A stretch of DNA of 24,213 bases. Origin: a virus. A program made the translations under genes and the position numbers. The notes beneath the pieces were generated by a model. That model was not told where the DNA came from. It searched no databases and saw nothing but the letters and a program-made list of their open reading frames with translations. The stretch is taken from the IMG/VR virus record IMGVR_UViG_3300028860_000021, positions 1 to 24,213 of that record. One strand, 5' to 3'. This document shows positions 2-17,344 of this stretch, one piece after another. Each line of letters starts with the position of its first letter. The first letter of the stretch is position 1.

Positions 2-1279
2 TCAGGCAGCTTGCTTGGGGACGTCCACAACGTCTCCCCACGGGGCTTTCCCCTGCGGATAGATGTTGCCCCAGATGACGGGATAGTTCGGCGGCTGGGC
101 CGGGAATGCGCCGCAGAGATCGGTGAGGTAGACCAGCGCGTCCGGCTTCAAGCCCAGCTTCTCGACCTCGTCGAACACCGGGATGAAGCTCGTGCCACCG
201 CCGCCGGGCGCTCCCTTGGCGCGGATCACGTTCAGGTCGGCGGCTTCCTCGCATTCGTCGGTGCGGTGCAGCTTGGCGTCGCACCACATGAGGAACAGCT
301 GCTTCGGCTTGCAGTCTTCCAAGATGCCGGAGACCTCGGCCAGAAACATATCGACCTCCTTGGGGCCGATACTTCCCGAAGTATCCACGCCAACCACCAC
401 GGTGCCGCAGCCGAAGCCGCTCCGCGACGGCGCGTAGATATCGCGATAGATCAGCTGGTCGTCTGGCGCCTGCCAGTTCCAGGAGCCGGTGCCGAGCTTG
501 CGGGCCATCAGTGCCTGAATGTGTTCCTGCCACGAGACTTTCGGGTTGAGGATCTCGCCCAGGAACCGCTCGAAGCAGCCGGCGACCGAGCCCTGCCTGC
601 GCGAGTTGGATGCCTTCTCGGCATCGGTTGCCGCGGCGACGTTCGTCTTCCACTCGATGTCGTCACGGTCGGCCATCGCCTGGTCCGGGCTGTTACCTGT
701 CGAGGTACCCGGCGCCAGATGCTGGTCGAAGCCGGTGCCGGTGCCCTTGTAGCCACCCTTGCTCGGCGGGTGCGCGGCGTAGACTTTCCGGTAGGCGTCG
801 ATCGCGCTGTCGGCGGCTACAGCGAGGCTGGTGTCATGCAGCCAGTCCTTGTTGAAGGTGCCGACCTTGCCCTCGATCAGCATGTCGTTGATGACCAAGT
901 CGGTCGCAATGTTCATGGTCTGGTGGTCGAATGGCAGCGTGGTGCCATCGGCGTAGGTGATCTTCCCGGTGCGCTTGAACTTGTGCATCTGGCCACAGTG
1001 GTCCCAGACGCAGTGCATGATCTCGTGAGCGCAGGCGAAGATGCGCTCATTGAGGTTGTATTTGAAGAACGTATCCGGGTTCAGCAGCAGGTTGCTGCCG
1101 TCAGTGGCCGCGATCGGCACGTCGCGCGTGAACAGCGCCACGTCGCGGGAGCCGGCGTTGTCGCACATCGTGTAGAAGATATGGATGAAGCCGGGACAGT
1201 GCCACGCCAGCGCGGTGCGCGTCATGTCCCATGCTTTGGATTGTGCGGGGGTGAGTGCGCAGGAAACCATCTTGGTCAT
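2..1279 (-). CDS. VWA domain / HExxH metallopeptidase-like protein (MoxR partner)
   Basis: About 425 residues. The N-terminal half carries HEIMH (about residues 85-89), a zinc-metallopeptidase HExxH signature, followed by a MNIATDLVIND segment as in VWA-like predicted metallopeptidases (DUF2201 type). The C-terminal half is a von Willebrand A fold: VVVGVDTSGS gives the MIDAS DxSxS (about residue 300), GGGGTSF supplies the MIDAS Thr, and LVYLTD the MIDAS Asp. The start at 1279 was chosen because GGAGG lies 5 nt upstream inside a palindromic start element; the frame stays open further upstream but overlaps the zinc-ribbon gene. Proteins of this type work with MoxR AAA+ ATPases, one of which lies two genes upstream at 2269-3336. 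Whether it is an active protease or a metal-dependent substrate adaptor cannot be told. It is complete; the stop lies at the window edge. Confidence 0.85.
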   Translation of the reverse strand: MTKMVSCALTPAQSKAWDMTRTALAWHCPGFIHIFYTMCDNAGSRDVALFTRDVPIAATDGSNLLLNPDTFFKYNLNERIFACAHEIMHCVWDHCGQMHKFKRTGKITYADGTTLPFDHQTMNIATDLVINDMLIEGKVGTFNKDWLHDTSLAVAADSAIDAYRKVYAAHPPSKGGYKGTGTGFDQHLAPGTSTGNSPDQAMADRDDIEWKTNVAAATDAEKASNSRRQGSVAGCFERFLGEILNPKVSWQEHIQALMARKLGTGSWNWQAPDDQLIYRDIYAPSRSGFGCGTVVVGVDTSGSIGPKEVDMFLAEVSGILEDCKPKQLFLMWCDAKLHRTDECEEAADLNVIRAKGAPGGGGTSFIPVFDEVEKLGLKPDALVYLTDLCGAFPAQPPNYPVIWGNIYPQGKAPWGDVVDVPKQAA

Positions 1280-1398
1280 GTAACCTCCGGGGGTAAGTCG
1301 TTGTAGTTCAGGCCGTCCCAGCCACAGTGCGGGCAGTAGCTGGGCTGCTCGTCTTCGTCGGCGTCCTCGTCGCACCGCGCGCAGATGAAGCGCCTCAC
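1276..1398 (-). CDS. Small zinc-ribbon protein
   Basis: A 40-residue protein with GTG start. It holds two CxxC knuckles (CARC near residues 7-10 and CPHC near 22-25) separated by an acidic DEDADEDEQ linker, a classic small zinc-ribbon layout. The GTG overlaps the TGA of the upstream gene (GTGA) and its own TGA overlaps the ATG of the VWA gene (ATGA), so all three are translationally coupled. Its last codons encode LPPEVT through the palindromic start element of the next gene, so that DNA serves as both coding and regulatory sequence. Function is unknown; a metal-binding accessory factor for the neighbouring metallopeptidase is possible but only inferred from adjacency. Confidence 0.75.
   Translation of the reverse strand: MRRFICARCDEDADEDEQPSYCPHCGWDGLNYNDLPPEVT
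1280..1297 (-). promoter_or_regulatory. Start-associated palindromic element (gene 2-1279)
   Basis: Minus strand CTTACCCCCGGAGGTTAC directly before ATG; contains GGAGG. It also encodes the end of the zinc-ribbon gene. Confidence 0.6.
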
Positions 1399-2268: not shown

Positions 2269-3336
2269 TCAGCTCAGCGCCGCCAGCAGCGATGCGTTGG
2301 ACGAACTCCACACCTTCATGGCGGGGTCGATCGCCAGCGCCGGCGCCCGCTTCGAGACGCTCTTGGCGAACGTGACTGCGAAGTCCTTGGGCATCCGCTC
2401 GATGTACTTGATGACCGGGCCGAGGGTCTTGCTGTCGACGCGATGCGCCAGGTTGAACACCACCATCATGTGGGCGTCCGGCTTATCGGGGACCTTGGCG
2501 CCCATCGGGTCAGCCACGATCTTCTCGAACTTCGGCATCTCCCGCTCCAGGCGGTAGCTGGCGAACAGCTGCGCCGCGGTGGGGGCGCCGATCGCGCCAG
2601 CCGTCTCCTCGATCACGGCGCTGTCGTGCGGCATGACCCCGTTGTTGTGCTTGGTGAGGATGCGGTGGTACTCGTCGATCCTCACCAGCGAGCGCGGCGT
2701 ACACCACGGACCCTGCTTGTCGGGTACTGCGTCAGTGAACACCAGCGCCGTGTTCTGGTTGGCGAAGTGGCGGCAGACGGGCGTTACCCCGTGGGTAAGG
2801 GCGTAGTCGTCCCAGGCCACGATGTCGTCGGTGACTTCCAGCTGGACCCTCCGATTGATCAGATGGTCCAGCTCCTTAGTCGAGCCCGAGCGATGCGCCG
2901 CGGTGTTGCCAGCCATCCAGACGATCCAGCCGGGCGGCAGCTTGTGCGGGCCGAAGTTGCCGCTCAAAGCGGCTTCGCCGACGCACTTCTTGACGTCCGC
3001 GTCCATCTTGTCGGCCTCGTCGACGAAGATGATCCCGCCGTCGTACTCTTCGAGGCGCTTACCTTCGGAGGTACGCCAGAAGAACGGCTGCGAGAAAATC
3101 ATCTCCGAGTAGCCTTCGGAGTGCTTCGGCAGGCCGAAGCCGAGGACGTGCATGGGCGTGAGCAGGCCGCCGTTGATGATGACAATCCCGAGGCGCTTAC
3201 CGGTCGCCTTGCCGATGATTTCCGGGGCGCGGGCGATGGTGGTGGTCTTGCCGCGGCCGGGCGCCGAGACGAGATAGAAGCACATGCCCGACTCGTACCA
3301 GGCAGTCATGCGGTTCATTATGGTGTTGAGGTTCAT
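2269..3336 (-). CDS. MoxR-type AAA+ ATPase
   Basis: A 355-residue P-loop ATPase. Walker A is SAPGRGKT (about residues 24-31), Walker B is GGIIFVDEAD (about 100-109), and the sensor-1 region is WIVWMAGNTAAHRSG. The C-terminal half is helical, as in AAA+ lid domains. Start at 3336 (MNLNTIMNRM) has GGAG 8 nt upstream; an in-frame extension to 3429 lacks support. MoxR ATPases typically pair with a VWA protein (RavA-ViaA, CbbQ-CbbO) and remodel or activate target complexes using ATP. The VWA/HExxH gene three genes downstream is the probable partner. The target in the infected cell is unknown. This gene lacks the palindromic start element of its neighbours. Confidence 0.88.
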   Translation of the reverse strand: MNLNTIMNRMTAWYESGMCFYLVSAPGRGKTTTIARAPEIIGKATGKRLGIVIINGGLLTPMHVLGFGLPKHSEGYSEMIFSQPFFWRTSEGKRLEEYDGGIIFVDEADKMDADVKKCVGEAALSGNFGPHKLPPGWIVWMAGNTAAHRSGSTKELDHLINRRVQLEVTDDIVAWDDYALTHGVTPVCRHFANQNTALVFTDAVPDKQGPWCTPRSLVRIDEYHRILTKHNNGVMPHDSAVIEETAGAIGAPTAAQLFASYRLEREMPKFEKIVADPMGAKVPDKPDAHMMVVFNLAHRVDSKTLGPVIKYIERMPKDFAVTFAKSVSKRAPALAIDPAMKVWSSSNASLLAALS

Positions 3337-3380
3337 GGGTGGGTCTCCTGTGGGTGGTGGGTTTGGTGCGTGTGAGTGCG

Positions 3381-3566
3381 CTAGACGCCGTGGTACTTCG
3401 CGTAGGCGGCGGCGTGGGTGGTGGTCCATTCCCTGACGGCGGGAATAAGCGCGGCGCGCGGGTACAGCCCCCCGAAGGCGTGCACGACATCCGCCTGCAC
3501 CTCGAACGGAAGGTGCTCGATGGCGGCCATTGCTTTGGTGACTCTGTCGTCGATGAGCTTATTCAA
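3381..3566 (-). CDS. Hypothetical 61-residue protein, TTG start
   Basis: Reads (M)NKLIDDRVTKAMAAIEHLPFEVQADVVHAFGGLYPRAAL, then ends HAAAYAKYHGV. Mostly helical and not recognised. The TTG start is chosen because GGAG lies 7 nt upstream inside a palindromic start element (3567-3584); the frame is open for a further 100 codons but without any ribosome site. The preceding gene ends inside the same element. It lies directly upstream of the MoxR ATPase gene, with a 44-nt gap. Confidence 0.65.
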   Translation of the reverse strand: MNKLIDDRVTKAMAAIEHLPFEVQADVVHAFGGLYPRAALIPAVREWTTTHAAAYAKYHGV

Positions 3567-3803: not shown

Positions 3804-3820
3804 ATTACTCCTGGGGTTAT
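3804..3820 (-). promoter_or_regulatory. Start-associated element (gene 3581-3802)
   Basis: ATAACCCCAGGAGTAAT, one base before ATG; overlaps the end of the dNTPase-like gene. Confidence 0.5.
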
Positions 3821-4326
3821 CGTATGGACGTGGGTGAAGGCTTGTGCAGGGGCGCGCCCTCGTAGGCGGGCGCTTCACTGTCGGCCCATTCGGGCTTGAG
3901 GATCACAGCCTCGGGGCGGTTGTCGGTGCCGACACCGCGCAGCTCGTAGGCAATGAGGAAGAGGATCATACAGCCGGCGTGCCAGAGGTGGCTCATGCCG
4001 GTCTCGGGGTCGCCGTCTTCGCGGCGCATCCACGCCTCGAGATGTCTGATGCAAGCGTCCCACGGGCGCGTCCAGTTCATGCCCTTCTCCCAATTGCGGG
4101 GGGCATACTTGATCGCGCCGAACGTCAGCACCTTCATGATGCAGCCGAGCGCGTCGAACGGTAGGAGAGTGAAGCTGGGCTTGCCCTCGTCGGCCTTGTA
4201 GCCGGTGACTAGCTTGGCGGGCGCGACCGGCTTGGTGGGGTGGGCGGCGAAGAGCGCTGCATATTCGGCCTCAGCGCGGCTGTCGCGCTCGTCTTGGAAG
4301 CGGTCGAGCGTTTTCTGTGAGGGCAT
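3817..4326 (-). CDS. dATP/dGTP diphosphohydrolase-domain protein (MazZ/DUF5664-like)
   Basis: About 169 residues. The core GKPSFTLLPFDALGCIMKVLTFGAIKYAPRNWEKGMNW, followed by RHLEAWMRREDGDPETGMSHLWHAG and LFLIAYE, matches the all-alpha dATP/dGTP diphosphohydrolase N-terminal domain found in many phages (DUF5664 type, related to MazZ). Family members hydrolyse purine dNTPs to dNMP and pyrophosphate; in 2-aminoadenine phages this feeds the Z-DNA pathway. Acidic metal-binding residues are visible (E and D around REDGDPETG). The first about 45 residues are a helical extension. Start ATG at 4326 has GGAG 6 nt upstream; an upstream in-frame TTG at 4332 is less likely. It is the first gene after a putative promoter block at 4367-4399. 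Confidence 0.8.
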   Translation of the reverse strand: MPSQKTLDRFQDERDSRAEAEYAALFAAHPTKPVAPAKLVTGYKADEGKPSFTLLPFDALGCIMKVLTFGAIKYAPRNWEKGMNWTRPWDACIRHLEAWMRREDGDPETGMSHLWHAGCMILFLIAYELRGVGTDNRPEAVILKPEWADSEAPAYEGAPLHKPSPTSIR

Positions 4327-4340
4327 TATCAACTCCGTTT

Positions 4341-7101: not shown

Positions 7102-7283
7102 GGCTTGCGGGCCAGTCCAAAGCCAGCCCCCAGCGAGTACCCGAGCATCACCCAATCTCCGGTGAGCATGAACACGAGGGCGTTCATCCCAATCCAAAGC
7201 CACGTCGATCGGGTACCGCCGAGCAGCCAGGTGGACAGGGCTACAGACACGACGCCAAAAGCGAACCCGATGATCACGGTCAT
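7098..7283 (-). CDS. Small two-helix membrane protein
   Basis: A 61-residue protein: MTVIIGFAFGVVSVALSTWLLGG, a short RSTW linker, then LWIGMNALVFMLTGDWVMLGYSLGAGFGLARKP. Two membrane segments with a basic C-terminus. The size fits holin-like or membrane-exclusion proteins, but no family motif is visible and no lysis genes are adjacent. Its leader (CCATAGGACC before ATG) closely matches that of the gene at 7467-7649, and it follows the multi-branched palindromic element at 7314-7444. Confidence 0.65.
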   Translation of the reverse strand: MTVIIGFAFGVVSVALSTWLLGGTRSTWLWIGMNALVFMLTGDWVMLGYSLGAGFGLARKP

Positions 7284-7313
7284 GGTGCGATGGTCCTATG
7301 GTGTTATGGGTTT

Positions 7314-9400: not shown

Positions 9401-9416
9401 GTACCTCCAAGGTTAC
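9401..9416 (-). promoter_or_regulatory. Start-associated element (gene 9222-9398)
   Basis: GTAACCTTGGAGGTAC two bases before ATG; contains the stop of 9413-9586. Confidence 0.6.
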
Positions 9417-9586
9417 ATGGTGTTGTGGGTTGCGATCGTGCCGTCGGCCAGCTCGCAGAGATACACGTCCACCTCCCAGGCTTTCTTGGCCTTGAAGTAG
9501 ACCGCCGCGGCGTCGCGAGCGTCGATCGAGCGCGCGGCCATGACTTGCCGCTGTCTGCCGCGATACCAGCAGATGTATGTGTGCAT
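9413..9586 (-). CDS. Hypothetical 57-residue protein
   Basis: MHTYICWYRGRQRQVMAARSIDARDAAAVYFKAKKAWEVDVYLCELADGTIATHNTM. The layout (strand, then A-R-S-x-x-A-R-D-A-A helix, then strands) resembles small phage proteins that remodel Arg/Lys-rich surfaces; no family named. The ATG overlaps the TGA of the upstream gene (TGATG) and GGAGG is 6 nt upstream. Its TAA stop lies in the next gene's start element. Confidence 0.7.
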   Translation of the reverse strand: MHTYICWYRGRQRQVMAARSIDARDAAAVYFKAKKAWEVDVYLCELADGTIATHNTM

Positions 9587-9938: not shown

Positions 9939-9960
9939 GGGTCGCGCTGAAGTTTCGCGA
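9939..9960. repeat. 22-bp direct repeat, copy 1
   Basis: Identical to 10011-10032; begins GGGTCGCGCTGAAG and ends TTTCGCGA. Confidence 0.8.
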
Positions 9961-10037: not shown

Positions 10038-10053
10038 TCATGGTGTTATAGGT
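10038..10053. repeat. TCATGGTGTTATAGGT repeat, copy 1
   Basis: Identical to 10091-10106. Related sequences with an ATGGTGTTAT core occur at 4485-4500, 7296-7311, 9415-9430 (one change) and, inverted, 12277-12291. On the minus strand it reads ACCTATAACACCATGA, containing a TATAAC that could serve as a -10. Confidence 0.7.
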
Positions 10054-10090: not shown

Positions 10091-10106
10091 TCATGGTGTT
10101 ATAGGT
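10091..10106. repeat. TCATGGTGTTATAGGT repeat, copy 2
   Basis: Identical to 10038-10053. Confidence 0.7.
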
Positions 10107-10681: not shown

Positions 10682-10698
10682 GTTACCTCCAGAAGTAA
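10682..10698 (-). promoter_or_regulatory. Start-associated element (gene 10496-10678)
   Basis: TTTACTTCTGGAGGTAAC three bases before ATG; the 23-bp inverted repeat at 10698-10785 abuts it. Confidence 0.6.
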
Positions 10699-10785
10699 AC
10701 CATTCAACCATGAAACCACGGCCGTGGTTGAGCCGCCGGACAATCTCGAATTAACTAGATCGCGTGGTCTCATGGTTGAATGGTT
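10698..10785 (-). repeat. 23-bp inverted repeat hairpin upstream of 10496-10678
   Basis: Arms 10698-10720 and 10763-10785 are complementary at 22 of 23 positions (the exception is a G-U pair on the minus-strand RNA). Between them, 10715-10730 is itself a perfect 16-bp palindrome AACCACGGCCGTGGTT sharing the CCACG of the arm, so alternative folds are possible. It sits directly upstream of a start element. Confidence 0.7.
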
Positions 10786-12269: not shown

Positions 12270-12276
12270 CCACCAA

Positions 12277-12291
12277 ACCATAACACCATCA
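12277..12291. repeat. Inverted copy of the ATGGTGTTAT repeat
   Basis: Reads ACCATAACACCATCA on the plus strand, upstream of 12317. This is the only copy found in the rightward block. Confidence 0.45.
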
Positions 12292-12316: not shown

Positions 12317-12622
12317 ATGATCAAACCGACAGTAGGCCGGGTCGTTCACTACCACCCATACATCACGGATACCGAGCTAGCGTTTACGGTTGGCGAACCG
12401 CTTGCCGCGATCATCACGAAGGTCTGGACCGATCGAATGGTGAGCCTCGCGGTGTTCGACGCCAATGGAAACGCTTTCGGGCGCACCAGCGTCGACCTGT
12501 TCCAGGGCGACGCGGCTAACCCCAACGAAAATGCGATGCCGTTCGCCGAGTGGGTGCCCTACCAGACCGGGCAGGCGGCAAAGACCGAGAAGCTCCAGGC
12601 GCAGCTGGACGCCAAGTCGTGA
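12317..12622 (+). CDS. Hypothetical 101-residue protein
   Basis: MIKPTVGRVVHYHPYITDTELAFTVGEPLAAIITKVWTDRMVSLAVFDANGNAFGRTSVDLFQGD, then AEWVPYQTGQAAKTEKLQAQ. The small beta-barrel-like pattern (GRVVHYHP, AAIITKVW, MVSLAVFD) is a type seen in many phage genomes as an uncharacterised protein. GGAG is 6 nt before the ATG. The TGA overlaps the next GTG. Confidence 0.72.
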   Translation: MIKPTVGRVVHYHPYITDTELAFTVGEPLAAIITKVWTDRMVSLAVFDANGNAFGRTSVDLFQGDAANPNENAMPFAEWVPYQTGQAAKTEKLQAQLDAKS

Positions 12623-12765
12623 CGATCGTCAAACTGATCGAGGCCGATGGCCGCCAGACCATCACGACCAGAATGGCCGGCCCCGATGGGAAGGCCACCA
12701 CCGAGACCATGACGCTCGGCGAGTGGTCGAAGCTGATCGCCAACCCCGAGATCATCGAAGAGTAG
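12619..12765 (+). CDS. Hypothetical 48-residue protein, GTG start
   Basis: (M)TIVKLIEADGRQTITTRMAGPDGKATTETMTLGEWSKLIANPEIIEE. Two strand hairpins then a helix; no family recognised. GTG at 12619 overlaps the preceding TGA (GTGA). A longer in-frame reading from 12550 lies within the upstream gene and is not favoured. Confidence 0.6.
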   Translation: MTIVKLIEADGRQTITTRMAGPDGKATTETMTLGEWSKLIANPEIIEE

Positions 12766-12775
12766 GAGATCCGAT

Positions 12776-12982
12776 ATGCCCGCGCCTTATGTTCAGACGT
12801 TCGTAGGCCTCGCCAACTTCGCCGCGGCCCAGGCCACGAACCTTGCCGCGTTCCAGGCGGACAATCCGGGGATCGCCAACCCGCAGGCAGCCGCCGACTC
12901 TTCGTGCACGCTCGGCCCCGATGGCGTGACCTACACGCTGACCTCGGACTTCGTCCCCGGCCCGAACGTCCCCGGCGCGTAA
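12776..12982 (+). CDS. Hypothetical 68-residue protein
   Basis: MPAPYVQTFVGLANFAAAQATNLAAFQADNPGIANPQAAADSSCTLGPDGVTYTLTSDFVPGPNVPGA. Ala/Asn/Pro-rich with no recognisable domain. Good ribosome site AGGAG 6 nt upstream. The TAA overlaps the next ATG (TAATG). Confidence 0.65.
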   Translation: MPAPYVQTFVGLANFAAAQATNLAAFQADNPGIANPQAAADSSCTLGPDGVTYTLTSDFVPGPNVPGA

Positions 12983-13098
12983 TGTTCTCGTACGCGCAAA
13001 TCGTTGACGGCTGGATCGCCTGTGGCCTGACCTTCGCCGCGATCATGGGCCTGCTGTGCTTCGTCGGCTACCTGGCCCTGAAGGGCACAAAACTATGA
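12982..13098 (+). CDS. Small single-pass membrane protein
   Basis: A 38-residue protein: MFSYAQIVDGWIACGLTFAAIMGLLCFVGYLALKGTKL. One membrane helix with a basic C-terminal tail. Holin-like in size, but no lysis partners are adjacent. Coupled to both neighbours by overlapping stop/start codons. Confidence 0.6.
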   Translation: MFSYAQIVDGWIACGLTFAAIMGLLCFVGYLALKGTKL

Positions 13099-13388
13099 GC
13101 GGGTTCAGCTTCAGCACCGCGCTGGTCCTGCTCAAGACCGGCTCGCGCGTCCAGCGCCACGGCTGGAACGGCAAGGGGATGTTCATCTTCCTCGTGCCGG
13201 AGGTTGGTTTCAGCGAGTTCGAAGTGAGTCGGCCGCCCCTGTTGGGGATCTACAAGGCCGGCACGCGCACCAAGTACCACGCCCATATCAACATGAAGAC
13301 GGCGGATGGTCAGGTGGTGCCTTGGTTGGCATCCCAGACGGACATGCTTGCCGAGGACTGGGGCCGCGCCCCCGAGGAGACCACATGA
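13095..13388 (+). CDS. tad2: DUF2829-family protein, Tad2-like (anti-Thoeris candidate)
   Basis: A 97-residue protein with the DUF2829 signature throughout: FSTALVLLKTGSRVQRHGWNGKGMF, then FLVPEV, RPPLLGIYKAGT, INMKTADGQVVPWLASQTDMLAEDW. Family members include Tad2, which sequesters the cyclic ADP-ribose-type signal of the Thoeris defence system. The core residues RxGWNGKGM, NMKTADG and PWLASQTDxLAxDW are all present, so an intact fold is expected; signal binding is inferred from family membership. Its ATG overlaps the upstream TGA, and its TGA overlaps the next ATG. Confidence 0.85.
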   Translation: MSGFSFSTALVLLKTGSRVQRHGWNGKGMFIFLVPEVGFSEFEVSRPPLLGIYKAGTRTKYHAHINMKTADGQVVPWLASQTDMLAEDWGRAPEETT

Positions 13389-13636
13389 ATATCGCCGGCA
13401 CCATGATCCCCGAGAACGCTATCCAGGGCACCCCGAACTTCGCCGTGGCCGTCCCCGCCGATGCCACCGTCTTGTCAAGCGTGCGCGGGGTCTACTGTTC
13501 GGTGGCCGGCACGCTCCAGGCGAAGAACGCCGCGGGCACCGTCGTGCCGTTCGTGATGGTCGCGGGCACCAAGCTGGACATCTCGCCGATCGCGATCATG
13601 ACGGCCACGACCGGAACCTACGTGGTTTTGTACTGA
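13385..13636 (+). CDS. Small virion-type beta protein (spike base/decoration-like)
   Basis: An 83-residue protein: MNIAGTMIPENAIQGTPNFAVAVPADATVLSSVRGVYCSVAGTLQAKNAAGTVVPFVMVAGTKLDISPIAIMTATTGTYVVLY. The pattern (A-x-x-x-RGVY-x-x-xAGTLxxxxAxGTxVxFxxVxxGTxLxIxxxxIxxTGTxxxxVLY) matches short beta-sandwich proteins seen in phages and gene-transfer agents as spike-base or head-decoration proteins. GAGGAGA lies 6 nt upstream. Its placement beside the Tad2 homologue rather than in the head cluster is unusual, so the assignment is moderate. Confidence 0.55.
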   Translation: MNIAGTMIPENAIQGTPNFAVAVPADATVLSSVRGVYCSVAGTLQAKNAAGTVVPFVMVAGTKLDISPIAIMTATTGTYVVLY

Positions 13637-13754: not shown

Positions 13755-14006
13755 ATGACCGACCAACCCACCCTAGCCGTACAGATCCGCGGCGCGCTCG
13801 GCCTCATCACCGAGGAGGTCGCCGCGGAGGTACTCCTCCTGAAGTCGGTGGACACACTGGCGACGTGGCGCTCCCAGAAGAAGGGACCCACCTACGTCAA
13901 GCTCGGCAAGCGAGTGTTCTACACGGTGAATGACCTCGGCCAGTGGATCGTCGCGCAGGCCCAGGCGCAGATGGCCGCTGAGGCAGCGCTGAGTCTCCCG
14001 GCATGA
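13755..14006 (+). CDS. AlpA/excisionase-type DNA-binding protein
   Basis: An 83-residue protein: the segment LLLKSVDTLATWRSQKKGPTYVKLGKRVFYTVNDLGQWI is the winged helix-turn-helix of MerR/AlpA/excisionase-like proteins (xxLxVSxxTLxxWRxxGKGPxYxKLGRRVxYxxxDLxxWL). It would bind DNA as a small regulator or recombination directionality factor. No integrase is in the window, so a transcriptional role is favoured. AGGAC lies upstream and it has its own putative promoter. Its stop overlaps the next ATG. Confidence 0.75.
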   Translation: MTDQPTLAVQIRGALGLITEEVAAEVLLLKSVDTLATWRSQKKGPTYVKLGKRVFYTVNDLGQWIVAQAQAQMAAEAALSLPA

Positions 14007-14365
14007 AGCTAGTCGTCCTGGAGAGCCCGTACGCGGGTAATTTTTTTCAGAGGTGGCTGAACCGGCGCTACGCGCGGAAGTGCGTCAGGGACTCGCTAAT
14101 ACGCGGCGAAGCCCCAATCGCGAGCCATCTGCTCTACACCCAGCCGGGCATCCTCAACGACAAGATCCCGAGCGAGCGCAAGCACGGGATCGCCGCCGGA
14201 CTCGCATGGCGCTACGTCGCCGAGGGCACCGTCGTCTACATCGACCGCGGCACTTCGAAGGGCATGGGGTATGGCATCGAGGCCGCGCACCGCGCCGGCC
14301 GCAACGTCGAGTATCGCTCGCTCAAGGTGATCCCTCCCCATGCCGTACAAGATCCGCGAAGTTGA
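14003..14365 (+). CDS. DUF7768-like protein (deoxyribosyltransferase-type fold)
   Basis: A 120-residue protein: MKLVVLESPYAGN, YARKCVRDSLIRGEAPIASHLLYTQPGIL, ERKHGIAAGLAWRYVAEGTVVYIDRG, SKGMGYGIEAAHRAGRNVEYRSL. The pattern ESPYAG, GEAPIASHLLYTQPG, RxxGIxxGxxW and GxxYGIExA characterises the phage DUF7768/DUF4406-type family, which is related in fold to nucleoside 2-deoxyribosyltransferases. Catalytic activity is not established. Start ATG overlaps the upstream stop; it ends 26 nt inside the GNAT gene. Confidence 0.7.
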   Translation: MKLVVLESPYAGNFFQRWLNRRYARKCVRDSLIRGEAPIASHLLYTQPGILNDKIPSERKHGIAAGLAWRYVAEGTVVYIDRGTSKGMGYGIEAAHRAGRNVEYRSLKVIPPHAVQDPRS

Positions 14366-14762
14366 TGGCGACGACGAGCACGACGACCTGACATCGCTGC
14401 ACCTTCGGACGTTTGGCCCGCATGAACCTATGGCCGACTTCAGTGAGGGATATTGGTGGCTGGCCTACTTCGAGGACGAGCCGATCGGCTTCGCCGGCGT
14501 GGGCGAGTCCATCCTAGATGACGGCATCGGGTACTTCTCGCGCGTCGGGATCCTCGAGCAGCACCGCGGCAACAAGCTCCAACTCCGCCTAATGCGAGCG
14601 TTCGAGGGTAAGGCCCGCCGGGTTGGCTGGAAGCGCATCGTAACCGACACCCATAACAGGCCCTACTCAGCCAACAACATCATCGCCGCGGGCTACCGAC
14701 TGTACAGCCCGATATACCCCTGGAGCTTCCCAAACGCCCTCTACTGGACGAAGGACCTTTGA
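14340..14762 (+). CDS. GNAT-family N-acetyltransferase
   Basis: A 140-residue protein. Core: YWWLAYFEDEPIGFAGVGE, IGYFSRVGILEQHRGNKLQLRLMRAFEGKARRVGWKRIVTDTHN, SANNIIAAGYRLY. The VGILEQHRGNKLQLRLM segment is the acetyl-CoA-binding motif A (V-x-x-xxxGxGxxL type, here with N-K-L), and the final AAGYRLY is typical of GNAT C-termini. Substrate unknown; phage GNATs can modify host or phage proteins or small molecules. It begins within the last 26 nt of the upstream gene; AGGTGA is a plausible ribosome site. Confidence 0.78.
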   Translation: MPYKIREVDGDDEHDDLTSLHLRTFGPHEPMADFSEGYWWLAYFEDEPIGFAGVGESILDDGIGYFSRVGILEQHRGNKLQLRLMRAFEGKARRVGWKRIVTDTHNRPYSANNIIAAGYRLYSPIYPWSFPNALYWTKDL

Positions 14763-15084: not shown

Positions 15085-16526
15085 GTCCAGCTGCTAGCTG
15101 TCATCTTGGGGCGCGTCGAGGTCGCCTTACCGGCCATGCGGCGCGCGAACAACCCCTGCATTCCGCCGTGCGCGCTCAAGCACGCGTACTGAAGAGCATC
15201 CGAGATATGCGAGTACTGGTTCTTGTCCGGCTTTGGCTTGCGCTGTCCGGTGCGCGTCTTGGCATAACGATACCCGCCGGCCATCGCCTGGATCAACGTC
15301 GGGCACCGGTCTTCATCGAAGATGATCGCTGGTCCGCCGTCGCGCTGCGCGAGCAAGAACGCTTCAACGGCTCGAAGTCGAGGGTCGATGTCGTTGGTGG
15401 GCGCGGGGAACGCCATGAACCCCATGCGCTTCAAAACATCGAACGTCGTCTCTTCATATATGGACGACTTCGATATCCCGGATGGATCCCCCACGATCGC
15501 GATCGGCTTACCCAGGTAGCGCGGGTCCATTAGCGCCGGCCGCAGCGCCTGCTCGATGTGCATCTCGAGACCGACGTCTTCGGCGGCGACTTCCTCCAGG
15601 ATCAGGAGGCGGCCCTTGTGGTCGAGCTGGCAGATGATGCTGCCGGGGTCCCGGCCGAAGTCCTGACCAACGATAAGAGGATGGCCTGAGACCGGTTGCA
15701 GATCCTTGACGACGTGAAAGCCGCGATTGAAGCTTTCGCGGAAGACAGCGGTGCCGCTCGGATCGTTGCCGTACTTGGCGTGCACGTAACGAAGCACCCA
15801 GTCGGTACCGCGGCCGCGCGCCAGGCGCTCATAGTAAAGCCTGCCTTGGGCGATCCGCCGCGGATCATCCAGGGGTAGCTTGAGCGTCTCGCTGGTCTGC
15901 GTGAGCCAGTTGAGGTTCTCGGCGCTCTCCTCGAGGCCACCCGGCTGGATGAAGATCTGCCAATCCATAGGCGTGTTGACCGCCATGAAGTTGTGCCAGT
16001 CGGATCCCTCGCTGGGCATATTGGTGTCGGCGATCATGCCGAACCAAGTGGCGCCACCCATTTGCGCGGAGGGATACCTCCCGAGGCGGCCGGCGAGCGC
16101 GTCGACGAGCGCCACGTCCATCTCGATCGACTCCGACATCCACGCACCGGTCAGCTGCATGGAGAGCAGCCTTCGCTGATCGTCGATGTTGTCCAGCGGG
16201 ATCAGGATCCACTCAGACCTCACGTCGCCGATCGTGACGTAGATGGTATTCTCCGAGACCTTGTACGTGGCCATGCCATCGAGCCAGGTAGTGATGTCCT
16301 TCAGGACCGTGTCCTTCAGCTGCTTCAGCGTCTGCCGAACGATCGCCCACCGCGTGTAACGGTAGCCGTCCGGCGCCTTGGCCTGCTCACAAGAGCGTCG
16401 GAAGAGCTCGAAGAGGCAGGTGATGGTCTTGCCCGAACCCACTGGACCGGCGAGCAACCGCCCGAAGGCCGCGCTCTTCATGAAGCGCGCACCTGTCGGC
16501 GGCGCCGTGAAATTGATGACGCTCAT
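15081..16526 (-). CDS. terL: Terminase large subunit
   Basis: A 481-residue packaging motor and nuclease. The ATPase domain has Walker A LLAGPVGSGKT (about residues 25-35), and the motif III and coupling regions follow. The nuclease domain has GQDFGRDPG (about 288-296), IVGDPSG and the late QYSHISDALQYA, giving the three acidic ligands of the RNase H-like fold. It cleaves concatemeric DNA and pumps it into the prohead. The ATG overlaps the stop of the HNH gene (ATGA). The whole packaging cassette is inverted with respect to the portal and head genes. Confidence 0.9.
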   Translation of the reverse strand: MSVINFTAPPTGARFMKSAAFGRLLAGPVGSGKTITCLFELFRRSCEQAKAPDGYRYTRWAIVRQTLKQLKDTVLKDITTWLDGMATYKVSENTIYVTIGDVRSEWILIPLDNIDDQRRLLSMQLTGAWMSESIEMDVALVDALAGRLGRYPSAQMGGATWFGMIADTNMPSEGSDWHNFMAVNTPMDWQIFIQPGGLEESAENLNWLTQTSETLKLPLDDPRRIAQGRLYYERLARGRGTDWVLRYVHAKYGNDPSGTAVFRESFNRGFHVVKDLQPVSGHPLIVGQDFGRDPGSIICQLDHKGRLLILEEVAAEDVGLEMHIEQALRPALMDPRYLGKPIAIVGDPSGISKSSIYEETTFDVLKRMGFMAFPAPTNDIDPRLRAVEAFLLAQRDGGPAIIFDEDRCPTLIQAMAGGYRYAKTRTGQRKPKPDKNQYSHISDALQYACLSAHGGMQGLFARRMAGKATSTRPKMTASSWT

Positions 16527-16864
16527 CCGTGGTCTTTCTCAAGATAGTCAGCAAGACGACGGAGCGTGGACGGTACGTCGCGGGCAAAACCGAGTGCCAG
16601 GTTGCAAGGGCGACACAGGATGCCTCGGACTTGTTCCGTCCGATGGCAGTGGTCGGTGTGCCAATGACCCTGTTTCTTCTTGCGGCAGCCGGCGCAGCGG
16701 TAGCCTTGCAGCCGCAGCATCCGGTTCCGCTCTTTCGTCGTGATCCCGTACCGCCGCTGGAGGCGGCGATCCGCCAACATCGGCGCCCGTAGCCTGTCGT
16801 AGGCGCGAATGCGCGCGGCGTTGTTCTTCCGCCAGTTCTTCAGGTACTGGCTTCGGGAGATCAC
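16523..16864 (-). CDS. Endonuclease VII-like HNH nuclease
   Basis: A 113-residue protein with GTG start directly after the upstream TAA. The C-terminal CAGCRKKKQGHWHTDHCHRTEQVRGILCRPCNLALGFARDVPSTLRRLADYLEKDHG is a recombination endonuclease VII (Endo VII) domain: CxxC and CxxC zinc pairs flanking DHCH, with the conserved VRGxLCxxCNxxLG. The N-terminus is basic (RSQYLKNWRKNN). Such HNH proteins next to terminase can resolve branched DNA or assist packaging in other phages; here only position supports that role. It is coupled to terL. Confidence 0.88.
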   Translation of the reverse strand: MISRSQYLKNWRKNNAARIRAYDRLRAPMLADRRLQRRYGITTKERNRMLRLQGYRCAGCRKKKQGHWHTDHCHRTEQVRGILCRPCNLALGFARDVPSTLRRLADYLEKDHG

Positions 16865-17344
16865 TTACTCGTCGGGGTCGTGATCAATTACCTTCGCGGG
16901 TAACTGCTTCTCAAAACTCAGCTTGTGGTCTTCGCCGAGATTGATCGTCACGGTGAAGCGCTCGCCGGCGCTCGCGCCGTCGACGTTGGGGACGCCGATG
17001 CCGGCCATGCGACCCAACATTTTTCCGGCCTCGACCTTCGCAGGGAGACCAATGTCGGCGTCGTGCAGGCGATTATTTAGTTCGGGCAACCACTCCTCGA
17101 GCATCGCCGCTGACTTTGCGCGGACGCGTTCGTGGGTGTTTGAGGCCCCATTCCACTCTTCAACCTGGCTCGAAAGCAGCTGAATGAATTTCGGGTTTGC
17201 CTGTAGAGACAGCCATGATTGGGCGTCGATCGAGTACTGTTTAAGTATAGTTTCGAGAGGGTGAATATCCATCGCAATTTCGCGAGCCAGCTTTACCATG
17301 CTGTTGTTGCTCAAGCTCGGCGATGTAATAGTTGTGGTGGCCAT
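16865..17344 (-). CDS. Probable terminase small subunit
   Basis: A 159-residue protein, MATTTITSPSLSNNSMVKLAREIAMDIHPLETILKQYSIDAQSWLSLQANPKFIQLLSSQVEEW, mostly helical, with the pattern of small-terminase helical DNA-binding and oligomerisation regions (LxxxYxIDAxxWxxLxxNPxFxxLLxxxVEEW). It ends in DHDPDE. Assignment rests on position (upstream of HNH and terL) and shape rather than a strict motif. No strong ribosome site; TATAATG overlaps the start, so a leaderless start or a later ATG (residue 16) is possible. Divergent from the portal gene. Confidence 0.65.
   Translation of the reverse strand: MATTTITSPSLSNNSMVKLAREIAMDIHPLETILKQYSIDAQSWLSLQANPKFIQLLSSQVEEWNGASNTHERVRAKSAAMLEEWLPELNNRLHDADIGLPAKVEAGKMLGRMAGIGVPNVDGASAGERFTVTINLGEDHKLSFEKQLPAKVIDHDPDE
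16887..16904 (-). promoter_or_regulatory. Palindromic element inside the small-terminase gene
   Basis: GTTACCCGCGAAGGTAAT on the minus strand, near the end of the gene and about 25 nt upstream of the HNH start; similar to the leftward start elements. Confidence 0.4.

What the first reader, a model, noticed from the sequence alone, without database searches (positions are those of the whole stretch)
13095..13388. Tad2/DUF2829 anti-Thoeris homologue in a compact accessory operon
All core motifs of DUF2829 are present. It is surrounded by overlapping small genes of unknown function (12317-13636), plus DUF7768, GNAT and AlpA-like genes. Anti-defence genes often cluster, so the neighbours are candidates for further anti-defence factors.
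Basis: partly seen in the sequence, partly recalled or inferred. Interest (0 to 1): 0.65.

Follow-up and report, generated by a model that had tools for sequence, protein, structure and literature searches.

The report
Phage Tad2 sponge with partner gene
The gene belongs to a known family of phage proteins that soak up a bacterial alarm molecule, and a small gene of unknown function just upstream is joined to such sponge proteins in other phages, which makes that neighbour a good candidate for a new immune-evasion protein.

Summary
Window 13095-13388 encodes a 97-aa Tad2-like protein (PF11195, E 6e-24; predicted fold matches solved Tad2 structures at Z about 12). The invariant WNG and W..SQ.D..A.DW motifs are present. 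It lies in an uncharacterised Tad2 subclade with its own conserved insertion (RPPLLGIY). It lacks the VKSLP insertion shared by the two cyclic-dinucleotide-binding Tad2s and falls outside the His-ADPR-binding (ModTad2) clade. A sponge for a cyclic-ADPR-type signal is therefore most likely; the ligand is untested.

The claim that the neighbours are anti-defence genes splits. The gene overlapping Tad2 downstream (13385-13636) resembles a virion spike-base protein. The upstream gene 12317-12622 (phrog_2293, 'VGR domain', unknown function) is more interesting. In other phages and prophages this domain is fused to Tad2, to the validated CBASS sponge Acb4 (PF13876), or to both in one chain (Pararobbsia: VGR-Acb4-Tad2). 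A Tad2 or Acb4 domain lies near or in the same ORF as VGR in about a quarter of 136 sampled VGR loci. In one set of homologous proteins the sponge domain is swapped while VGR is kept. VGR is a candidate new anti-immune-signal domain: a testable inference, not a demonstration.

The parts
13095..13388 (+). Tad2-like (PF11195/DUF2829) protein, 97 aa
   Evidence: Pfam E 6.4e-24; PDB phmmer hits to all solved Tad2; AF2 fold match Z 12.0-12.6; place in tree
12317..12622 (+). VGR domain protein (phrog_2293 N-terminal domain), 101 aa; candidate second anti-immune gene
   Evidence: phrog_2293 E 1.8e-22; fusions with Tad2 and Acb4 elsewhere; AF2 SH3-like barrel, pLDDT 88.5
12619..12765 (+). small ORF, 48 aa, GTG start overlapping the VGR stop; no homologue found
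12776..12982 (+). small ORF, 68 aa, no homologue found
12982..13098 (+). 38-aa ORF that reads as one transmembrane segment by eye; overlaps the Tad2 start
   Evidence: sequence itself; translation
13385..13636 (+). spike-base-like virion protein (RCAP_Rcc01079 family resemblance), 83 aa, ATGA overlap with Tad2
   Evidence: NF048002 E 9.3e-6, 25.8 bits (below cut-off of 28); phrog_12296 tail fiber E 0.002; homologue in sister phage L086
13755..14006 (+). AlpA/HTH_17-like small regulator, kept beside terminase in many sister phages
   Evidence: phrog_66 E 6e-5; found in most sisters
14003..14365 (+). DUF7768, related to phage nucleoside 2-deoxyribosyltransferase families
   Evidence: PF24963 E 2.8e-26; phrog_355 E 1.5e-20
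14340..14762 (+). GNAT acetyltransferase
   Evidence: PF00583 E 8e-7

Best explanation
The gene encodes a Tad2-family sponge. Small subunits (tetrameric in solved homologues) would bind and hide an NAD-derived cyclic ADP-ribose-type alarm molecule made by a TIR (Thoeris ThsB) enzyme of the host, so that the effector is not triggered. It sits in a translationally coupled phage operon with a VGR-domain gene, which is probably a further anti-immune-signal protein or a partner of sponges. Shown: family, fold, conserved motifs, operon, and the recurrent fusion or adjacency of VGR with Tad2 and Acb4 elsewhere. Inferred: sequestration, the kind of ligand, the anti-Thoeris effect, and the role of VGR.
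For: Family and fold. In 67 homologues G16, R21, W24, N25, G26, W77, D83 and D88 are invariant and K27, S80, Q81 and W89 nearly so; all are present here. The WNGK loop and the W..SQ.D segment lie in the elements that a review assigns to the gcADPR pocket (loop beta1-beta2, loop beta4-alpha3, helix alpha3; PMC12043709). SQTD is shared with SPO1 and HgmTad2, whereas ModTad2 has SVSD. VGR linkage: Tad2 in 10 of 80 viral and 6 of 56 prokaryotic VGR loci, nearly all same strand within 650 bp, many in one ORF (uniform-position binomial p about 4e-8 and 1e-7). Acb4 hits in 12 of 80 and 13 of 56. Fusion tally: 11 Tad2 and 8 Acb4 among the 44 longest VGR ORFs (5 of the 11 Tad2 came from a Tad2 query). 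L163 and L155/L234 share a 75%-identical N-terminal part but end in Acb4 or Tad2. L259 is VGR-Acb4-Tad2; L252 has the order Tad2-VGR. Acb4 = PF13876 (PMC11722364).
Against: No ligand, host or phenotype data. The subclade (starred branch, 22 rows) holds no characterised member. Family members differ in ligand (gcADPR, His-ADPR, cyclic dinucleotides), so 'anti-Thoeris' cannot be read off the family. VGR is not seen near most Tad2 of this subclade: of 80 loci only the window's own phage (L004) and L024. Tad2's immediate downstream neighbour looks structural.
Confidence: 0.8

Rival explanations
1. The protein is a Tad2-fold sponge, but for another signal: His-ADPR (type II Thoeris), cyclic dinucleotides (CBASS), or a signal not yet described that fits the subclade's own conserved insertion.
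For: Solved Tad2s bind different ligands. The window's subclade has its own strongly conserved F.V.R.PLL.IY..GT..Y insertion, absent from the four characterised proteins.
Against: It lacks the VKSLP insertion shared by the two cGG-complexed Tad2s (HgmTad2, SptTad2) and lies outside the starred ModTad2 clade (100/96).
Confidence: 0.3
2. It is an anti-CRISPR (AcrIIA7-type): HgmTad2 was first named AcrIIA7, an inhibitor of type II CRISPR-Cas, and the same fold could inhibit Cas9.
For: The AcrIIA7/HgmTad2 chains are among the best PDB hits (8kbi, 9kzr); databases still use the name.
Against: The structures show small-molecule ligands in the fold. The window protein lacks the long HgmTad2 insertion.
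Confidence: 0.05
3. The gene has become part of a virion or late structural cassette and has no immune role; its neighbours are spike and fibre genes.
For: ATGA overlap with a spike-base-like gene. In sisters L086 and L088 this slot carries spike-like genes. A phage 812 neck protein is a weak fold match (Z 6.4).
Against: The motifs are intact. Other sisters carry Tad2 plus Acb4 (L122) or VGR (L106) in this slot. Spike-base genes are absent from nearly all other Tad2 records.
Confidence: 0.08

Closest known systems
SPO1 Tad2 (gp34.65; PDB 8SME/8SMF) and the Tad2-like family PF11195
   Same: Fold (Z 11.7-12.6), length, WNGK and SQTD..AEDW motifs
   Different: 38-45% identity in the structural alignment; different central insertion (RPPLLGIY..GT..Y); different subclade
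ModTad2 (PDB 9EIB, His-ADPR)
   Same: Fold Z 12.4; similar total length
   Different: W.PSVSD instead of W.ASQTD; separate starred clade
HgmTad2/AcrIIA7 and SptTad2 (PDB 8KBI-8KBM, 8WJD; cyclic dinucleotides)
   Same: Fold Z 11.3-12.6; W.ASQTD segment
   Different: Window lacks the longer VKSLP insertion and the extra G before the tryptophan (VNGW)
Acb4 (PF13876) CBASS sponge
   Same: Partner by fusion or adjacency of the VGR domain
   Different: Not found in the window proteins scanned; unrelated to Tad2
phrog_2293 (unknown function)
   Same: The 12317 gene is its N-terminal domain (E 1.8e-22)
   Different: The window protein lacks the C-terminal half of the phrog profile

Membership tests
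Tad2 (PF11195) | Profile match over the curated cut-off | tested here: met
   84.7 bits against a cut-off of 25, E 6.4e-24
Tad2 (PF11195) | Tad2 fold | tested here: met
   AF2 pLDDT 90.5; Z 12.0-12.6 over 86-91 residues to four different Tad2 proteins
Tad2 (PF11195) | Conserved WNGK loop and W..SQ.D..A.DW segment near the ligand site | tested here: met
   All present, with pocket elements from PMC12043709. Individual contact residues were not read from coordinates.
Tad2 (PF11195) | Homotetramer with two ligand sites | not testable with these tools
   Only monomer prediction was available
Tad2 (PF11195) | Binds a TIR-made signal and blocks Thoeris | not testable with these tools
   Needs binding and phage assays
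CDN-binding Tad2 subtype (HgmTad2, SptTad2) | Longer VKSLP insertion in the middle of the protein | tested here: not met
   Absent in the window protein
ModTad2 (His-ADPR) clade | Same clade and W.PSVSD segment | tested here: not met
   Window lies outside the starred ModTad2 clade and has W.ASQTD
AcrIIA7 anti-CRISPR | Inhibits type II CRISPR-Cas | not testable with these tools
   Sequence relation only
phrog_2293 / VGR domain (gene 12317) | Profile match and PTVGR.VHY...W.PYQ.GQAAK motif | tested here: met
   E 1.8e-22; A5 alignment
Spike base protein RCAP_Rcc01079 (gene 13385) | Profile match over the curated cut-off | tested here: inconclusive
   E 9.3e-6 over 60 of 85 positions, but 25.8 bits is below the cut-off of 28

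The most novel reading that the evidence does not exclude
The VGR domain (gene 12317-12622, phrog_2293) is an unrecognised phage anti-immune domain, either a sponge for another nucleotide signal or a scaffold common to sponges. Phages string it with Tad2 and Acb4 into polyvalent anti-signal proteins or operons, and the window carries a split two-gene version with a Tad2 of an uncharacterised subclade.
Probability: 0.4. Interest if true: 0.75.

Novelty: new member of a known kind. Interest (0 to 1): 0.5.

Why it matters
As a Tad2 it extends a known counter-defence family into a subclade with no characterised member. The VGR link matters more: a widespread phage domain of unknown function is tied by gene fusion to two experimentally established sponge families. 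That gives a concrete candidate for a further class of immune-signal antagonist, a short list of natural fusions to test, and a guide (domains fused to Tad2: VGR, WDGH, PGDYG, phrog_872 N-terminus) for finding more.

Tried and rejected
PADLOC gave no match for any gene and NCBIfam none for Tad2 or VGR. Spike-base genes do not travel with Tad2 in general: of 50 records only 4 have a match, one of them a Tad2 record. Clustering ORFs around 80 Tad2 of this subclade found no conserved partner family. DUF7768 as a co-travelling anti-defence gene: 0 of 7 loci have Tad2, VGR or Acb4, and no paper naming DUF7768 was found. Fold search with the VGR model: only generic SH3/Tudor-like barrels, best Z 6.8, no Foldseek match below 0.001, so no function from fold. 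The neck-protein resemblance of Tad2 (8qkh, Z 6.4) is too weak to use. STALD/ThsB in the eight bacterial genomes that hold selected VGR loci: no ThsA and two weak ThsB hits, so no co-occurrence argument is possible. No paper names phrog_2293; only two held papers mention both Acb4 and Tad2. The primary Tad2 structure papers are not in the library, so contact residues were not checked one by one.

Full report
Observation. The ORF 13095-13388 (+) is real and complete, starts ATGA-overlapped with the previous gene and ends ATGA-overlapped with the next. It matches PF11195 Tad2-like at E 6.4e-24 and all solved Tad2 proteins by sequence. An AF2 model built from 57 window/locus sequences has pLDDT 90.5 and aligns with SptTad2 (Z 12.6, 91 residues, 3.3 A), SPO1 Tad2 (12.6, 88, 4.0), ModTad2 (12.4, 86, 3.2) and HgmTad2 (12.0, 88, 3.1); every unrelated row lies at Z 6.4 or below.

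Genome. The window is a 24,213-base IMG/VR record. TerL, portal-like head-tail adaptor, major head protein and other virion genes are present. The nearest named relatives are Rhizobium phages (TerL 58%; major capsid gene 74.5% DNA), so an alphaproteobacterial host is a guess, not a result. In 297 genomes drawn from the order of a Bradyrhizobium genome, 2 hold a ThsA STALD domain and 45 a ThsB-type TIR domain; in those two the ThsB hit lies within about 2 kb on the same contig. So Thoeris-like targets exist in such hosts but are not common.

Which Tad2. In 67 homologues G16, R21, W24, N25, G26, W77, D83 and D88 are invariant. The WNGK loop and the W..SQ.D segment fall in the structural elements that a review gives for the gcADPR pocket (PMC12043709); contact residues were not read from coordinates. 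A tree of 58 sequences puts the window in a starred subclade (97/89, 22 rows) without SPO1, HgmTad2, SptTad2 or ModTad2. The subclade has its own insertion, F.V.R.PLL.IY..GT..Y. The two proteins solved with cGG (HgmTad2, SptTad2) share a longer VKSLP insertion that the window lacks; the same review ties cyclic-dinucleotide binding to an insertion in this part of the fold. ModTad2, solved with His-ADPR, has SVSD where the window, SPO1 and HgmTad2 have SQTD. The best guess is a cyclic-ADPR-type ligand. This rests on three or four reference proteins and is weak.

Neighbour downstream. Gene 13385-13636 resembles the spike base protein RCAP_Rcc01079 family (E 9.3e-6, slightly below the curated cut-off). 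The closest sister phage that extends this far (L086, TerL 87%) has a homologue upstream of its AlpA-like gene, next to long ORFs that look like virion spike or adhesin genes, and L088 has a 651-aa ORF that reads as a tailspike-like protein there. This neighbour is more likely structural than anti-defence.

Neighbour upstream. Gene 12317-12622 is the N-terminal domain of phrog_2293 (E 1.8e-22), called here the VGR domain from PTVGR.VHY. AF2 gives an SH3-like five-stranded barrel plus a C-terminal helix (pLDDT 88.5) with no close solved relative. In mycobacteriophage Curiosium a VGR gene overlaps a DUF2829 gene by 4 bases. Scans with the VGR alignment in viral contigs and in prokaryote genomes gave two separate samples. 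Tad2 was found in 10 of 80 and 6 of 56 loci, mostly on the same strand and within 650 bp, with single-ORF fusions in L155, L186, L195/L196, L234, L237, L259 and, in reverse order and with a weak Tad2, L252. Against uniform placement and random strand the binomial p is about 4e-8 (7 of 9 viral, duplicates merged) and 1e-7 (5 of 5 genomes, weak L252 left out); loci share ancestry, so these are guides only.

Second sponge. Pfam scanning of the 44 longest VGR ORFs found Tad2 in 11, PF13876 in 8 and crAss001_48 in 6; five of the Tad2 cases came from a Tad2-based query and must be discounted. PF13876 is the Acb4 family, an experimentally established CBASS sponge (PMC11722364). A local Acb4 model hits 12 of 80 viral and 13 of 56 genome VGR loci, mostly immediately downstream or in the same ORF, against 0 of 80 loci of the window's own Tad2 subclade and 2 of 49 TerL-sister loci. 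Counting the union by hand, 35 of 136 VGR loci have Tad2 or Acb4. L163 is 75% identical to L155 and L234 over about 240-255 residues from the N terminus, then ends in Acb4 where they end in Tad2. L259 (Pararobbsia silviterrae contig) reads VGR-Acb4-Tad2.

Spread on the Tad2 tree. VGR-linked Tad2s fall in several separated places: L199/L218/L247; fusions in the ModTad2 clade; L262/L214/Curiosium; L195/L259/L234; L204; the window. The tool's own label count, which ignores unlabelled rows, forces only two changes, so repeated origin is likely but not proven.

The slot beside terminase. Among sister phages, L122 carries a Tad2 and an Acb4 gene here, L106 a VGR gene, and L086/L088 spike-like genes. 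The slot is a variable accessory site that repeatedly receives anti-signal genes. Tad2 also occurs fused to WDGH, PF13876, PGDYG-like and phrog_872 N-terminal domains.

Verdict. The Tad2 call is right and ordinary as a family assignment. The VGR domain as a new anti-immune domain is the part worth testing; I give it 0.4.

Noticed in passing
window 7281-7311, 9416-9430, 10039-10053, 10092-10106, 12276-12290 (minus): A CCAT-rich element (YATGGTGTTATRGKT and complement) occurs 18 times with up to 3 mismatches against 0.8 expected. Copies lie upstream of leftward genes and, in the matching orientation, just upstream of the VGR-Tad2 operon; it may be a shared leader or regulatory element that ties this operon to the non-structural genes.
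   Followed up: partly
window 10698-10720 / 10763-10785: 23-nt inverted repeat, 96% complementary with 42 nt between the arms, in the gap between leftward and rightward genes; also a perfect 22-nt direct repeat at 9939 and 10011.
   Followed up: no
window 2-1375 (-) and 2269-3429 (-): DUF2201 metallopeptidase/VWA-like protein (E 2e-23) with a nearby weak AAA match: looks like a MoxR/VWA-type pair in a phage.
   Followed up: no
window 3817-4332 (-): dATP/dGTP diphosphohydrolase N-terminal domain (PF18909, E 6.5e-29).
   Followed up: no
window 16523-16864 (-): Endonuclease VII-type HNH gene between the putative small (16865-17344) and large terminase genes; present in the closest sisters (L086-L089) and absent in most others.
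   Followed up: partly
window 14003-14365; L086:2904-3398 (-): Between AlpA-like and GNAT the window has DUF7768 (deoxyribosyltransferase-like); the sister L086 has a different protein there that by eye resembles the DUF4406/NDT type, so the slot may keep an NDT-fold enzyme of unknown role.
   Followed up: no
L241, L251, L257, L210 and others: VGR is also fused to crAss001_48 (PF21825) helical domains (6 of 44 ORFs; members named here by eye), a family of unknown function that may belong to the same anti-signal repertoire.
   Followed up: no
L322, L324, L297, L292: Tad2 domains fused to WDGH (PF25311), Acb4 (PF13876), PGDYG-like and YIGTK (phrog_872 N-terminal) domains: more candidate anti-signal modules.
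   Followed up: partly
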